Shown one piece after another: positions 1 to 5,088 of a stretch of 43,371 bases of DNA (position 1 is the stretch's first letter; every line of letters begins with the position of its first letter). The translations under genes were made by a program, and so were the position numbers. The notes under the pieces were generated by a model. It was given only the letters and a program-made list of their open reading frames with translations, did not search any database and was not told the DNA's origin. The DNA comes from Halonotius pteroides (GTDB lineage: Archaea; Halobacteriota; Halobacteria; Halobacteriales; Haloferacaceae), in NCBI RefSeq assembly GCF_003605635.1, contig NZ_QMDW01000021.1:1-43371 (forward strand), in the 5' to 3' direction.

Positions 1-1081
1 TATTAGCGGCAGCGTTGATGTCGGCCTGAAACGTCGAAACGTGGCAGTCGTCGTGCGGGCATCGGAACTCTACCTGTGAGTCCCGACGCCCGAGACGGTA
101 ACATGAGTGGCACGTTTGCGAGGTGTACTCTGGATTCACGTACTCGACGGGGACGCCTGCTTCCGCCGCCTTATCCTCGATGCGGCCTTGCAGCCGGGCG
201 AACGCCCACGAGTGCAGCCGACGGTTCATGTACTCGCCGTAATCCAGTGATTCACGGATGTACGTCAAATCCTCCATCACTACCACTGGATTCTCAAACT
301 GTTGGGCATACTCGACGGCCTGCCGAGACGCTTTCTCGACAATATCAGTGAGCGCGTTCTGGTAGTGGTCGAATCGATTGTCGATCCGCCACTCGGCAGC
401 GTCACGCTCTTGCAGCCGTTTCAGGGTCGTATGCATCTCCTTGCGGAGGTGTTTCGCTTTATTGCCGCTACACACGAACGGGTCAGTCGGAGAACCGTCC
501 TTGAGGGCACAGCCCGTTATCAGGGCGGTTTCTCCGATGTCTAACCCGACGTATGTGGCGTCACCGTCTGTCGCTGGGTCTTCGACCGGGTACTCGACGG
601 TGACGTGTAGTACCCAGTTGTTCTGGTGCTGTTGCAGCCGTATCTCGCCTGCTTTCGCGTCCTCTGATACAAGATCATGCCAGAGGTCTTCTTGTTCAGG
701 ATTGATTCGAAGCGGTATCCAGAAGTTCGTCCCCCGGCCCGGTTGTGGAACCCACCATGTAAACTCGTAGTCGCGGTCGGCGGAGTGATCGAACTCCGCT
801 GCTTGATTGGTGAGCCGTATCGGGTGTTCGTCGTCTAACTCCTCGGCGTTGTACGTGTTGCGGAGTTGCGGGACGTAGTTGCAGAGGGCGGCCTTCGCTT
901 GATACGGCAGGTCGTAGGGTGTCACGATGTCGCTGACTGCCGACATGGTACTCGCCCCAGCATCGAAGGCCGCTTGTAGCCCGTCACGATACGTTTTAAG
1001 CAGATCCGTCAGCTTCGACTGTTTGTGTGCTGTCGGTGGCGCGAACGTCGCCTGTAACGTCTTCGTGACGGTGTTCGGCAT
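1..1081 (-). CDS. tnpB: TnpB, IS605-family RNA-guided endonuclease (3' end off-window)
   Basis: TnpB is the RuvC-type nuclease carried by IS200/IS605 elements; characterised relatives use an RNA from the element's right end as guide. I translated the minus strand from the ATG at 1081: about 360 residues, open to the window edge. It shows a RuvC-I motif (GLDIGE), a RuvC-II motif (VVMEDLTYI), the start of a zinc ribbon (CHSCYRLG, then a second Cys pair in RCPHDDC) and the RuvC-III motif DINAAAN in the last visible residues. All catalytic acids are therefore present and only the extreme C-terminus and right end are missing. The start lies 2 nt after the tnpA stop, so the pair is one transcription unit. 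Confidence 0.93.
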   Translation of the reverse strand, partial: MPNTVTKTLQATFAPPTAHKQSKLTDLLKTYRDGLQAAFDAGASTMSAVSDIVTPYDLPYQAKAALCNYVPQLRNTYNAEELDDEHPIRLTNQAAEFDHSADRDYEFTWWVPQPGRGTNFWIPLRINPEQEDLWHDLVSEDAKAGEIRLQQHQNNWVLHVTVEYPVEDPATDGDATYVGLDIGETALITGCALKDGSPTDPFVCSGNKAKHLRKEMHTTLKRLQERDAAEWRIDNRFDHYQNALTDIVEKASRQAVEYAQQFENPVVVMEDLTYIRESLDYGEYMNRRLHSWAFARLQGRIEDKAAEAGVPVEYVNPEYTSQTCHSCYRLGRRDSQVEFRCPHDDCHVSTFQADINAAAN

Positions 1082-1083
1082 TG

Positions 1084-1479
1084 TTACTGATCCTCCACGT
1101 AGTCCATCAACACGTCGATGCTCACCTGTCCGGTCGTAGCAAGAAAGTATCCCGGCTGCCAGAAGGCATCATCGAGTGCCTGCCGGGTTTCTGGGTATTC
1201 GTCCCGAATTTTCCGAGACGAGACACCCTTGAGCGAGTTGATGAACTTGGTAAGCTCAGTGGTTGGTTCTGCGGTAAACAGGATGTGAACGTGGTCAGAA
1301 CCACCGTTGACGTTCTGGATGTTCACATTGAAATCTGCGGCGATATCACTGGCGATCTCCCCCAGCCGTTCTGCAATCTCGTCGATGAGGATGTCGCTCC
1401 GATACTTTGTGACGGTCACAAAGTGATATTGGAGCGCGTACACCGTGTGCGACCCTTTTTCGAGGTTATACTTCATTTG
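1084..1479 (-). CDS. tnpA: TnpA, IS200/IS605-family HUH transposase
   Basis: This is the small tyrosine (Y1) transposase that cuts and joins single-stranded DNA at the hairpin ends of IS200/IS605 elements. The 131-residue product contains the HUH motif as DHVHILF and ends with the segment DYVEDQ, whose Tyr matches the catalytic tyrosine in the family's Y-x-E-x-Q tail. The YHFVTVTKYR segment near the N-terminus is also typical. I chose the internal ATG at 1479 because the family usually begins a few residues before the SHTVYALQYHF segment; an upstream ATG at 1527 would add 16 unlike residues. It looks intact and may mobilise related elements in trans. Confidence 0.92.
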   Translation of the reverse strand, partial: QMKYNLEKGSHTVYALQYHFVTVTKYRSDILIDEIAERLGEIASDIAADFNVNIQNVNGGSDHVHILFTAEPTTELTKFINSLKGVSSRKIRDEYPETRQALDDAFWQPGYFLATTGQVSIDVLMDYVEDQ

Positions 1480-1581
1480 GCCGTAACATTTTCTATACAC
1501 CCAATTCCAATAAACGTTTGCTAACATGGGGTATTCAGCCTTCGACCAACGGTGGAACGGTCAGTAGTTGTCGGCTTCACG

Positions 1582-1622
1582 CCCGCCGTAAACGGCGGGA
1601 TTCTCGCCTTGAGAAAAGATAG
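1582..1622 (-). repeat. IS605 left-end hairpin and conserved end sequence
   Basis: A perfect 7-bp stem with a TAAA loop lies at 1582-1599 (CCCGCCG / CGGCGGG), upstream of tnpA. The bases 1588-1622 match 4571-4605 at 30 of 35 positions, which marks both as the left ends of related IS200/IS605-type elements. The element boundary is probably near 1620, but the exact cleavage site cannot be fixed without an empty-site comparison. The rest of 1480-1703 shows no gene. Confidence 0.7.
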
Positions 1623-1703: not shown

Positions 1704-2636
1704 TCACGATCGATCTGTTGGGTTTGTCTCTCGGCCTGCTGAGAGACGGTCGCGGATCAGCCCCTGTTTCAGCAGCAGAAAACCGACGAAGATGACGACG
1801 AAGCCAGCGATCGCCGCCGTATCGAGCGACTCGTCGAGCACGAGCCACCCCGAGAGAGTAGCAAAAACTGGGACGGAGTACGAAACGAGGTTGATCTCGA
1901 TCGCACCGAGGCGATCGAGCAGTTCGAAGTAGATGACGTAGCCGACCGCGCTGGCGAACACCGCGAGATAGACGACTGAGACGATCGCGACTGGCGTGAC
2001 AGTAACGTCGGCGACAGACTCCGCGGGACGGCCGGCACTCATCACGTGCAACAACAGGGCTCCGACTGCCGTCGACCACGCGACCATCCCCTCGGTGCCG
2101 ATGTCGCTGTCGATACGCTGGATGGCGACGCTCCCGAACGCGACACAGCCCGCCGCCGACAGGACGAACGCCGGCGCGATGAGATCGGCAGCAAGCGAAC
2201 TCGTTGACTCGGGGAAAGCGACCAACCCCACGCCGAGAAAGCCGAATAAAAGCCCCACGGTTTCGATCCCGCCGAACTGTTCTTGCGGGAGCAAGACCCG
2301 GGAGAATCCCGTCGCGAGAATCGGGTTCATACCGATAAGGATGGCACCGACGCCGCTGGTGACACCCTGCTGGCCGATAAACAGGAAAGCGTTGTAGAGC
2401 GCGATAATGAGCGTCGCGCCGACGAGGACGGTCAGCCAGTCGGCACGGCTTCGTGGTCGCCACTCACCGGTCGTCGCCGCCACGTAGCCGAGCATCAGGA
2501 TGCCGGCGATATCATACCGCACCGCCGCGAACAACACTGGCGGCATGAATTCGACACCGAGTTTGATCGCCATGAACGAGGTGCCCCAAAGAAACGACAA
2601 CAGGAGAAACAGTCCGCCGTCGCGTATGGTGCTCAC
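1704..2636 (-). CDS. EamA/DMT-superfamily membrane transporter
   Basis: A drug/metabolite transporter of the EamA (RhaT/YdcZ-like) type, probably exporting a small metabolite; the substrate cannot be read from sequence. The 310-residue protein has about ten hydrophobic helices in two EamA repeats. The first contains SFLWGTSFMAIKLG near the N-terminus and the second contains LVSYSVPVFATLSGW near residue 250, the usual conserved spots. The GTG at 2636 is chosen because the first membrane helix starts right after it; the open frame further upstream runs antiparallel through the carbonic anhydrase remnant and is not protein-like. It sits between two transposon zones but appears complete. Confidence 0.88.
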   Translation of the reverse strand: MSTIRDGGLFLLLSFLWGTSFMAIKLGVEFMPPVLFAAVRYDIAGILMLGYVAATTGEWRPRSRADWLTVLVGATLIIALYNAFLFIGQQGVTSGVGAILIGMNPILATGFSRVLLPQEQFGGIETVGLLFGFLGVGLVAFPESTSSLAADLIAPAFVLSAAGCVAFGSVAIQRIDSDIGTEGMVAWSTAVGALLLHVMSAGRPAESVADVTVTPVAIVSVVYLAVFASAVGYVIYFELLDRLGAIEINLVSYSVPVFATLSGWLVLDESLDTAAIAGFVVIFVGFLLLKQGLIRDRLSAGRETNPTDRS

Positions 2637-2709: not shown

Positions 2710-3060
2710 TCAGTACTCCCAGAGGCGGCCGATCCGCGCGTCGATCTCTGGCTGAGCTGCTCGGAGCGTTGCGACGTCGGTTTCACCGTCGATATTGATG
2801 ACGTGGAGTTCGCCGCGTTTGCCGTCGTACTGATCCTGGAAATCGTCGACAACGCCGACCGCGGTGACGCTGTCTGCGATGGCATCGCCGTGCCGCAGAT
2901 GTTCGATCTGGCGGTCGACGTGGCACTCAACGAGCCGGTTGATCGCTGCCTCCCGCGAGAGGCTCGTGGAAAGCCGTTCAACACCGGGCGCAAGATGCGG
3001 TTTCAGGAGCCCGAGGCTGTGTTCAATGCCGGCCGGCTCGTTCCGGTGGTCGCTGATGTG
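2710..3060 (-). pseudogene. Beta-carbonic anhydrase, 3' half only
   Basis: I translated the minus strand from 3060 to the stop at 2710-2712. The 116 residues resemble the C-terminal half of haloarchaeal beta-carbonic anhydrase: PAGIEHSLGLLKPHLAPGVE, then INRLVECHVDRQIEHL, VGVVDDFQDQYDGKRGELHV and the ending ARIGRLWEY. The N-terminal half with the zinc ligands (C-x-D-x-R and H-x2-C) is absent. Homology begins exactly where the right end of the neighbouring TnpB element stops, so the gene was most likely interrupted by that element. The missing 5' half is not on the other side of the element (4416-4638), so there was also a deletion or rearrangement. The identification is by eye and needs a database search. 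Confidence 0.75.
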
Positions 3061-3090
3061 ACATCCTCCTCGCCGTCAACGGCGAGGCTT
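3061..3090 (-). repeat. Right-end hairpin of solo TnpB element
   Basis: CCTCGCCG at 3068-3075 and CGGCGAGG at 3080-3087 form an 8-bp stem with a TCAA loop, just downstream of the tnpB stop. In characterised systems the right end forms the 3' part of the guide RNA scaffold and the host sequence beyond it (here 3060 downward, in the carbonic anhydrase remnant) supplies the guide. Hairpin position is seen; the guide-RNA role is inferred from the family. Confidence 0.6.
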
Positions 3091-3110
3091 CCCGACCGCA
3101 GTTGGGATAT

Positions 3111-4415
3111 TTATGATTTGCAGCTGCTCGCTTGTTCAGCGAACGTCCCCTGTCCACAGCTCGGGTCGTGTTCTCCACGACGGAACAGGTTGACTACTGG
3201 ACGTGCCACACGCCCGCTACTCCTATCCCCGGACGACCGAGGATTCAGAGTTACCTTTTCTGCTTGATCTAACCGACACCGAATGTTCTCCGCACCATTC
3301 GAGTCAGCGTTCATTACGGTTCCACAGTTTCGACAAACGTACAAGCCGCGCTCAACACGGTTGGCGTCTCGCTTCTGTCCACAACACGAACACGTCTTCG
3401 ACGTGTCTCGCTCGCTCACTACAACTACGGCGATGCCTTCGGTTTTCGCCTTGTAGGTGAGCAAGTTTGTGAATCGGTCGAGTGCCCACCCGTGCAAGCC
3501 TTCGTTGCCACGGTCGCCCCAGTTGCGAGGCTCACCTGTCTCATCGTCTTCACGGATGCCTTCGAGATTGCCGACAGCAATCGTCCCGACACCTCGTTCA
3601 ACACACTCTGTAACGATGTGTTTCGCAACAGCGTGCAGGTAGTGGGATCGACGCTCAGAACGCTTCTGTCGGAGTTTGAGTGCTTTGTTCGACCGAGACG
3701 AGTTGCACTTCGCTATCTCCTTGGCGAAGTACCGTTCGTCGGTCTTGAGAGCGTTCCCCGGATACAGCTCGTGATCGCTCGTAGAATACGAGACGGCGGC
3801 GAAATTCGATATACCGAGGTCGATTCCAGCAGTTTCGTCGCCGGGAGACTCAGCCTCAATCTCGTGTTTGCAGACGATGTGGAGCTCCCATTCGTCTCCG
3901 TTCCAAACTGCTTTCACCTGACGGACGTTCCCAATGGTCACATCTGGTCGGGTTTCGATCTCGCAGAGGATGAAGTCTGACCAGTGTTCTTTGAGGTTGC
4001 GGCCTTTTGAGAGGCGTATCCGATTGTTCTTGGGGTCGTGTTTGAATCCGTCTTCTTTGAACGTGACCGTCGACCGTGGGTGGTCGTCGCCGCTCTTGCG
4101 ATACTTCGGTGGGTTTGCGCGGTCGTCCCCGTTTCGGCGTTTGGCATACCACCCGTGGAACGCTTCAGCGAGTTCTTCAATGACTCGCTGACTCGACTGA
4201 GAATTGAGGTCGGCGTAGCGTTCGTGATTCTTCAGGTATGCCTTGAGTGGGCCATCCTCGGGGATTGTCCCTGTTTCGCTCCAGATACGGTCGCACGTCC
4301 AGCGTGCGATGTTCCAGAGCTTCGAGGCGGCAAACCCGAGCGAATCCAAGCCACTCTGTACCTGTTGCTGATTCCGTATGGTAGCAACGTAGGTTCGAGT
4401 GACCTGAATCGCCAT
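3111..4415 (-). CDS. tnpB: TnpB, solo IS1341-type RNA-guided endonuclease
   Basis: An intact 434-residue TnpB with no tnpA beside it. The RuvC-I motif is AGIDLGISNF near residue 197, RuvC-II is VGNLEGIRED near 283, the zinc ribbon has CSCCGQ and CRNCGT around 343-366, and RuvC-III is MNADSNGAENI. All catalytic acids and four zinc cysteines are visible, so it should be an active nuclease if expressed. A TATA-like TTAAGTAG lies about 25 nt upstream of the ATG at 4415, giving a leaderless transcript. The basic, low-complexity tail after the RuvC-III motif probably overlaps the guide-RNA scaffold. It belongs to a different TnpB lineage from the one at the left edge but shares its left-end sequence. 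Confidence 0.93.
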   Translation of the reverse strand: MAIQVTRTYVATIRNQQQVQSGLDSLGFAASKLWNIARWTCDRIWSETGTIPEDGPLKAYLKNHERYADLNSQSSQRVIEELAEAFHGWYAKRRNGDDRANPPKYRKSGDDHPRSTVTFKEDGFKHDPKNNRIRLSKGRNLKEHWSDFILCEIETRPDVTIGNVRQVKAVWNGDEWELHIVCKHEIEAESPGDETAGIDLGISNFAAVSYSTSDHELYPGNALKTDERYFAKEIAKCNSSRSNKALKLRQKRSERRSHYLHAVAKHIVTECVERGVGTIAVGNLEGIREDDETGEPRNWGDRGNEGLHGWALDRFTNLLTYKAKTEGIAVVVVSERDTSKTCSCCGQKRDANRVERGLYVCRNCGTVMNADSNGAENIRCRLDQAEKVTLNPRSSGDRSSGRVARPVVNLFRRGEHDPSCGQGTFAEQASSCKS

Positions 4416-4512
4416 GCATAGGCTATGTAGACAAACCTACTTAATGATGCGGATTAGCGTTGAATATCCGGTCTGCTATCGACGGGGGCTGTGGTGGAGT
4501 TGTCGGATTCAC

Positions 4513-4605
4513 GCCTGGTCGCCAGACTGCGTCTGGCGGGCAACCAGAACGCCGGCGTTCTGGTGACGGCGTAAACGCCGGGATTCTCTCCTTGTAGAAA
4601 GATAG
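4513..4605 (-). repeat. Left end of solo TnpB element with nested hairpins
   Basis: Three inverted repeats lie upstream of the tnpB promoter: CGCCAGAC/GTCTGGCG with a 3-nt loop (4520-4538), a perfect 20-bp palindrome (4544-4563), and CGGCG/CGCCG with a TAAA loop (4567-4580). Bases 4571-4605 match the left end of the tnpA-tnpB element (1588-1622) at 30 of 35 positions. The rest of 4416-4638 contains no coding sequence that I can recognise. Confidence 0.65.
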
Positions 4606-4638
4606 GGTAATGACCGCCGGCGGACACCGGATTGCCGA

Positions 4639-5088
4639 TCAGAACTCGCGGTTCGATTTCGAACCCAGATCGGCCGGATCGGTCTCGATCCCACCACGCC
4701 CGACAAACTCGTAGTCGTCGTCGACGAGTTGGACAACGCCGTCTGCAACCGTGAGATCAACCTCGCTGAGGTACGCGCCCTCGCAGGGCCCGAAGGTACA
4801 GAACCCAGTATCGGACTCAAAGTACGCGCCGTGATTGGTACAGATGATCTCGCCGTTGCGCATCTCCGCGCCGGAGCCCTTGTCGAGTTTGATATGTCGG
4901 AAATGCTGACAGTAGTTGAGCCAGCCGACGACCCCCTCGTCGTCCCGCAGCATGATCGCCTCCCTGATCTCGCCGGATTCCCTATCGGGGCTCTCCCGAA
5001 CCTCGGCGTCAGTCGGCCGCACGCGGAACAGGAATGTCGTATCTGTCGGTACGTCGTCAACCGGTGCGATCCGCCTGTCAGCACTCAT
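4639..5088 (-). CDS. Rieske [2Fe-2S] domain protein
   Basis: A stand-alone 149-residue Rieske-type ferredoxin or oxygenase-ferredoxin-like protein. The two cluster motifs are visible: NYCQHFRHIKL (C-x-H, with a further H) near residue 59 and ICTNHGAYFE (C-x2-H) near 81, so two Cys and two His ligands are available. There is no signal peptide or membrane anchor, so it should be cytosolic. The first 50 residues contain a charged segment (REAIMLRDDEGVVGW) forming the early beta-strands. Its partner is not evident; the pab genes behind it on the same strand are separated by about 50 nt and could be cotranscribed. Confidence 0.88.
   Translation of the reverse strand: MSADRRIAPVDDVPTDTTFLFRVRPTDAEVRESPDRESGEIREAIMLRDDEGVVGWLNYCQHFRHIKLDKGSGAEMRNGEIICTNHGAYFESDTGFCTFGPCEGAYLSEVDLTVADGVVQLVDDDYEFVGRGGIETDPADLGSKSNREF

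What the first reader, a model, noticed from the sequence alone, without database searches (positions are those of the whole stretch)
2710..4605. Carbonic anhydrase half-gene abutting an intact TnpB element
The beta-carbonic anhydrase homology begins exactly where the element's right end stops, and the catalytic half is missing from the other side. The element therefore seems to have entered the gene and part of the locus was then lost. If TnpB is active, its guide would be read from the sequence beyond the right end, that is from the carbonic anhydrase gene, and could attack an intact copy brought in by gene exchange, spreading the disruption.
Basis: partly seen in the sequence, partly recalled or inferred. 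Interest (0 to 1): 0.5.

Follow-up and report, generated by a model that had tools for sequence, protein, structure and literature searches.

The report
TnpB transposon replaced carbonic anhydrase start
In a salt-loving archaeon a small TnpB transposon sits in the promoter of a carbonic anhydrase gene whose first half is now missing, leaving a dead remnant; this is a well-documented example of ordinary gene loss by a mobile element, not a new kind of system.

Summary
The half-gene is real. Window 2710-3042 (-) is the C-terminal half of a beta-carbonic anhydrase (CA). In three named Halonotius species the same place (EamA gene - CA - Rieske gene) holds an intact CA with no element. The element runs 3058-4601: a tnpA-less IS200/IS605-type TnpB element with an intact tnpB under purifying selection, preceded by CTAT (4602-4605). 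Twenty-eight of 32 left ends read have CTAT.

The left end lies after the CTAT of the CA TATA box, 26 bp before the ATG in all three relatives, so the element entered the promoter, not the gene body. The 374 bp from there to codon 117 are gone. Unambiguous CA homology resumes at 3041; the 15-16 nt before it (the guide position) do not match CA significantly. The predicted guide has no target in the relatives' CA genes.

The genome has no beta-CA family hit. The mechanism of the deletion is unresolved: recombination between two copies, a later deletion, or repair after a TnpB cut. Deletions next to mobile elements in haloarchaea are already published. Novelty is low; the useful by-products are the element's exact ends and TAM.

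The parts
2710..3042 (-). 3' half of a beta-carbonic anhydrase gene (from about codon 117), pseudogene without start
3042..3057 (-). 16 nt right of the element: guide position of the predicted omega-RNA; origin ambiguous (promoter flank or diverged CA)
3058..3093 (-). right end with 8-bp hairpin (3068-3087) ending AGGATGTCAC; predicted 3' part of the omega-RNA scaffold
   Evidence: hairpin in 14 distinct copies with two columns of three pair types; base after GTCA is C in 11 of 11 elements with both ends
3111..4415 (-). tnpB, 434 aa, intact; D199, E335 (alternative Glu), D371
4416..4601 (-). left end with palindromes, starting CTTTCTACAAGGAGAGAATCC
4602..4605 (-). CTAT target motif (TAM), at the place of the TATA box of the carbonic anhydrase promoter
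4606..4638 (-). remaining Rieske-CA intergenic region
4639..5088 (-). Rieske-type protein gene, upstream neighbour of CA in relatives
1704..2636 (-). EamA transporter gene, downstream neighbour of CA in relatives
1..1618 (-). second element in the same orientation, with tnpB (2-1081, cut by the contig end) and tnpA (1084-1527) and the same kind of left end after CTAT (1619-1622): possible transposase source in trans

Best explanation
A non-autonomous IS200/IS605-type element (tnpB only) inserted 3' of the CTAT in the TATA box of a beta-carbonic anhydrase gene in a Halonotius, moved by a tnpA in trans (inferred; one sits 1.6 kb away). In the same or a later event the 374 bp between the insertion point and codon 117 were lost on the right-end side (shown by comparison with three relatives). 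What remains is a promoterless, startless 3' half-gene. How the deletion arose is inferred, not shown: a deletion adjoining the right end, or recombination between two same-orientation elements, are the ordinary routes.
For: Intact CA without element between the same neighbours in G003, G002 and G004. CTAT sits 26 bp before the CA start and 374 bp before the resumption point in 3 of 3 (G002 has two further CTATs nearby). CTAT precedes 28 of 32 distinct left ends read; its background is 0.0009 per position in the window. Taking the element out leaves an open frame in two other copies, read by eye, and joined flanks match contiguously in element-free genomes for three elements, so ends and TAM are set. 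tnpB dN/dS is 0.10 against a 93%-identical copy of another genus. No PF00484 hit genome-wide.
Against: No strain of the same species without the element was available, so the pre-insertion sequence is inferred from relatives about 80% identical. In two other copies the empty sites of relatives read CGAT, CAAT or CCAT rather than CTAT, so the TAM may be looser than CTAT. Fragment dN/dS (0.145-0.153 against three relatives) is not clearly above that between intact relatives (0.085, 0.086, 0.182), so decay is recent or slight.
Confidence: 0.85

Rival explanations
1. Two same-orientation elements, one in the CA promoter and one in CA near codon 112, recombined and deleted the DNA between them, leaving one hybrid element.
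For: Same-orientation elements with like ends lie close together in this window. In another genome (G095) an element has flanks that are 7.35 kb apart and collinear in G014, with CGAT just before the right-hand junction in relatives.
Against: In relatives the four bases before the CA junction would be GGAT or GGTT, not CTAT (read), and the 16 nt next to the right end do not look like CA (P=0.33). Identity to four sister copies (two of them identical) shows no step along the element.
Confidence: 0.35
2. TnpB cut the element-free promoter allele about 15-21 bp from the TAM; repair copied the element plus about 15 nt of flank from a sister copy and then joined the resected right end to CA codon 117.
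For: Clear CA homology resumes 16 nt after the right end, where ISDra2 TnpB cuts (15-21 bp from the TAM, PMC8612924, passages read). The first six nt resemble the promoter flank (ATCAGC/ATGAGC; P=0.067 for the 16 nt).
Against: One case only; the other deletion found (G095) has no such remnant. Cut site, guide length and activity of this TnpB are unknown.
Confidence: 0.12
3. Unrelated ordinary deletion after insertion, by illegitimate recombination next to the right end.
For: Simplest; Haloquadratum indels are reported to start or end at mobile elements (PMC3119063, passages read).
Against: Does not explain by itself why the right end is intact to its last base.
Confidence: 0.4
4. The 2710-3060 frame is a complete short gene of another family.
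For: No Pfam or NCBIfam hit alone.
Against: Aligns to the C-terminal half of full-length genes in the same synteny and has no start codon.
Confidence: 0.02

Closest known systems
IS200/IS605 TnpB-only elements (IS1341-type) of haloarchaea, with tnpB-overlapping sotRNAs/omega-RNAs (PMC12558985 and PMC3119063, passages read)
   Same: tnpB alone, near-terminal palindromes, no target duplication, short target motif at the left end
   Different: nothing essential; the ends, TAM CTAT and right end GTCAC are defined here for this subgroup
TnpBs with rearranged RuvC-II Glu (Ealt; PMC10711439, PMC10278001, passages read)
   Same: E335 lies in the pattern ExxxxxxCxxC; D199, E335 and D371 invariant in 30 of 30
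   Different: RuvC-I reads DLG, not the DPG of the Fanzor-like group
Deletion-coupled insertions of Haloquadratum (PMC3119063, passages read)
   Same: foreign DNA stands in place of a lost host segment
   Different: here the insert is one defined transposon and its left junction is a normal TAM
Beta-carbonic anhydrase (PF00484)
   Same: C-terminal half
   Different: catalytic half, promoter and start missing

Membership tests
IS200/IS605-type TnpB element | TnpB with OrfB/TNB domains and RuvC D-E-D | tested here: met
   PF01385, PF07282, NF040570 over cut-off; D199, E335 (alternative position), D371 in 30 of 30
IS200/IS605-type TnpB element | insertion 3' of a fixed short motif without target duplication | tested here: met
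   CTAT in 28 of 32 left ends; joined flanks contiguous in element-free genomes for 3 elements; but relatives' empty sites differ in one letter
IS200/IS605-type TnpB element | near-terminal hairpins | tested here: met
   right-end hairpin in 14 distinct copies, 108 of 112 cells paired, columns 3 and 6 with three pair types each
IS200/IS605-type TnpB element | RNA-guided cleavage of the TAM-flanked empty site | not testable with these tools
   needs biochemistry
Functional beta-carbonic anhydrase | zinc ligands and start codon present | tested here: not met
   first 116 codons absent; no start
Deletion-coupled insertion | insert in place of a lost segment at one position relative to relatives | tested here: met
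   374 bp replaced by 1544 bp plus about 15 nt
Deletion-coupled insertion | insertion and deletion mechanistically coupled | not testable with these tools
   no intermediate allele found

The most novel reading that the evidence does not exclude
The locus is a scar of TnpB-guided copying: TnpB cut the element-free carbonic anhydrase promoter at the end of its guide, the element was copied in from a sister chromosome together with the guide-length flank, and the broken right end was joined about 350 bp away. If so, TnpB drive leaves flank deletions that begin at guide length and erode neighbouring genes in haloarchaea.
Probability: 0.1. Interest if true: 0.65.

Novelty: new member of a known kind. 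Interest (0 to 1): 0.3.

Why it matters
It is a clean natural knock-out of what seems to be the only beta-carbonic anhydrase of a haloarchaeon, with intact sister species for comparison, so the need for this enzyme can be tested. It also fixes the ends, TAM (CTAT) and guide position of a TnpB subgroup with an alternative catalytic Glu, which makes a cleavage assay directly possible. If flank deletions starting at guide length proved recurrent, they would be a genomic trace of TnpB activity.

Tried and rejected
Rejected: the fragment as its own family. Rejected: insertion in the coding region followed by deletion leftwards, because the left junction coincides with a conserved CTAT of the promoter in 3 of 3 relatives. 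Considered: CTAT as part of the element; rejected because G014 carries CTAT at the left flank of a G095 copy without the element and the three Halonotius relatives carry it here. Led nowhere: the origin of 3042-3057; relaxed selection on the fragment; a gamma-type carbonic anhydrase in the genome (hexapeptide hits; four of the eight loci looked at read as acetyltransferase-like or DapD-like by eye, names recalled; alpha type not tested); Rfam (0 hits); further flank-deletion cases (12 joined flanks of 12 elements searched: three contiguous empty sites, one collinear 7.35-kb gap, the rest not decided); the L095 codon comparison is not usable (indels) and L092 was missed by the start pattern; one search dropped L046; one search counted 0 through a wrong pattern and was redone.

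Full report
What the fragment is. Window 2710-3060 (-) is open for 116 codons. Alone it matches no Pfam or NCBIfam family and nothing relevant in the PDB. In 60 genomes (own and relatives), 44 have a match at E <= 1e-5; the best same-genus matches are 77-79% identical and cover the last half of intact proteins of about 228 aa. The H. aquaticus protein is a beta-carbonic anhydrase by PF00484 (5.5e-26). In the genome of the window PF00484 gives 0 hits at E <= 0.001, while it rings in 9 of 14 control genomes; the fragment itself has no second copy (one weak hit, E 0.06).

Which organism. G003, G002 and G004 carry contigs of the lengths of H. aquaticus F13-13, H. roseus F9-27 and H. terrestris F15B, so the window is from a Halonotius. 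The size (3.01 Mb) fits H. pteroides (3.0 Mb in PMC6719526, passages read), but no call names it.

The empty site. In G003, G002 and G004 the window aligns collinearly on both sides: EamA - CA on one side and Rieske onwards on the other, with window 3042-4610 (G003), 3042-4627 (G002) and 3042-4626 (G004) not aligned and an intact CA in its place. G001 keeps CA next to Rieske on a 6.7-kb contig. The relatives have CTAT 26 bp before the CA start and 374 bp before the point where homology with the window resumes (codon 117), in 3 of 3; G002 has two other CTATs near.

The element. Right ends AGGATGTCAC with a preceding 8-bp hairpin occur throughout the family; in 14 distinct copies 108 of 112 hairpin cells pair, and two columns show three pair types. 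Left ends found by a pattern (53 matches in 19 of 148 genomes) were read for 32 distinct contexts: 28 have CTAT, and one each CGAT, CTGT, ATAT, CCAT before CTT...CAAGG. Taking out the element leaves open frames in L092 and L093, read by eye; joined flanks of three elements (own 347-bp mini-element, L093, L092) match contiguously in element-free genomes. At those sites the relatives read CGAT (17) or CAAT (2) for the first and CGAT (5) or CCAT (1) for the second, against CTAT in the carriers. I read this as insertion into alleles with CTAT, but a looser TAM or a change made on insertion is not excluded. In the window the element is therefore 3058-4601 (1544 bp) with TAM 4602-4605; sister copies are 1493-1545 bp and 88-90% identical.

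TnpB. It passes PF01385, PF07282 and NF040570. The usual RuvC-II Glu position reads Gly against PDB relatives, but E335 in ExxxxxxCxxC is invariant with D199 and D371 in 30 of 30 copies, the rearranged arrangement described for other TnpBs (PMC10711439, PMC10278001, passages read); one rearranged ortholog of another clade cleaved DNA there. tnpB dN/dS to the copies in G025/G128 is 0.10. So activity is plausible but untested.

What happened. The left junction is a normal insertion after the promoter CTAT. The right junction is not the other half of that insertion: 374 bp are missing. The 16 nt next to the right end (3042-3057) score 2.5 against CA (P=0.33 among 4000 random window 16-mers) and 4.5 against the bases that follow CTAT in relatives (P=0.067): undecided, leaning to promoter flank. 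No relative's CA locus is among the 52 near matches to CNAT plus 13 guide nt.

Is it usual? One other copy (L070, G095) has flanks collinear but 7.35 kb apart in G014, with a right-hand junction directly at a CGAT of relatives and no guide-length remnant. Haloquadratum indels that begin or end at mobile elements, deletion-coupled insertions, and 52-bp core-deleted elements are published (PMC3119063, passages read). TnpB acting as a drive against element-free plasmids is reported (PMC11870625, abstract). My literature searches did not turn up this locus, the CTAT motif or guide-length flank deletions; the held library lacks most subscription papers.

Consequence. CA here has lost promoter, start and the catalytic half. 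4 of 29 near-invariant columns are changed in the remnant (28 homologs), but dN/dS against relatives (0.145-0.153) overlaps that between intact ones (0.085, 0.086, 0.182), so the loss looks recent.

Noticed in passing
L014 (own genome C32 start) and L081 (G086 C25): In two copies the element sits exactly at the stop codon of a gene running towards it; the element's terminal TCA supplies a TGA stop in place of the relatives' stop (CTA, TCA or TTA on this strand), so the gene is kept.
   Followed up: partly
L151 (G095) against L150 (G014): A TnpB element whose two flanks are 7.35 kb apart and collinear in G014; the right flank cuts a gene that reads like orc1/cdc6 (name recalled).
   Followed up: partly
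empty sites L190-L209 and L210-L214: Relatives' element-free sites read CGAT, CAAT or CCAT where carriers have CTAT.
   Followed up: partly
window 1-1622: Second element (tnpB cut by the contig end, tnpA) with the same left-end type after CTAT but a TnpB with the usual Glu (MEDL): two TnpB lineages share one end type.
   Followed up: partly
L081 (G086) and own C104:122780-123121: Mini-elements of 52 bp (left and right end fused) and 347 bp, like the PATEs of Haloquadratum.
   Followed up: partly
G002:C4:54056-54385: H. roseus carries a second, distant carbonic anhydrase paralogue (36% identity) that the window's genome lacks.
   Followed up: no
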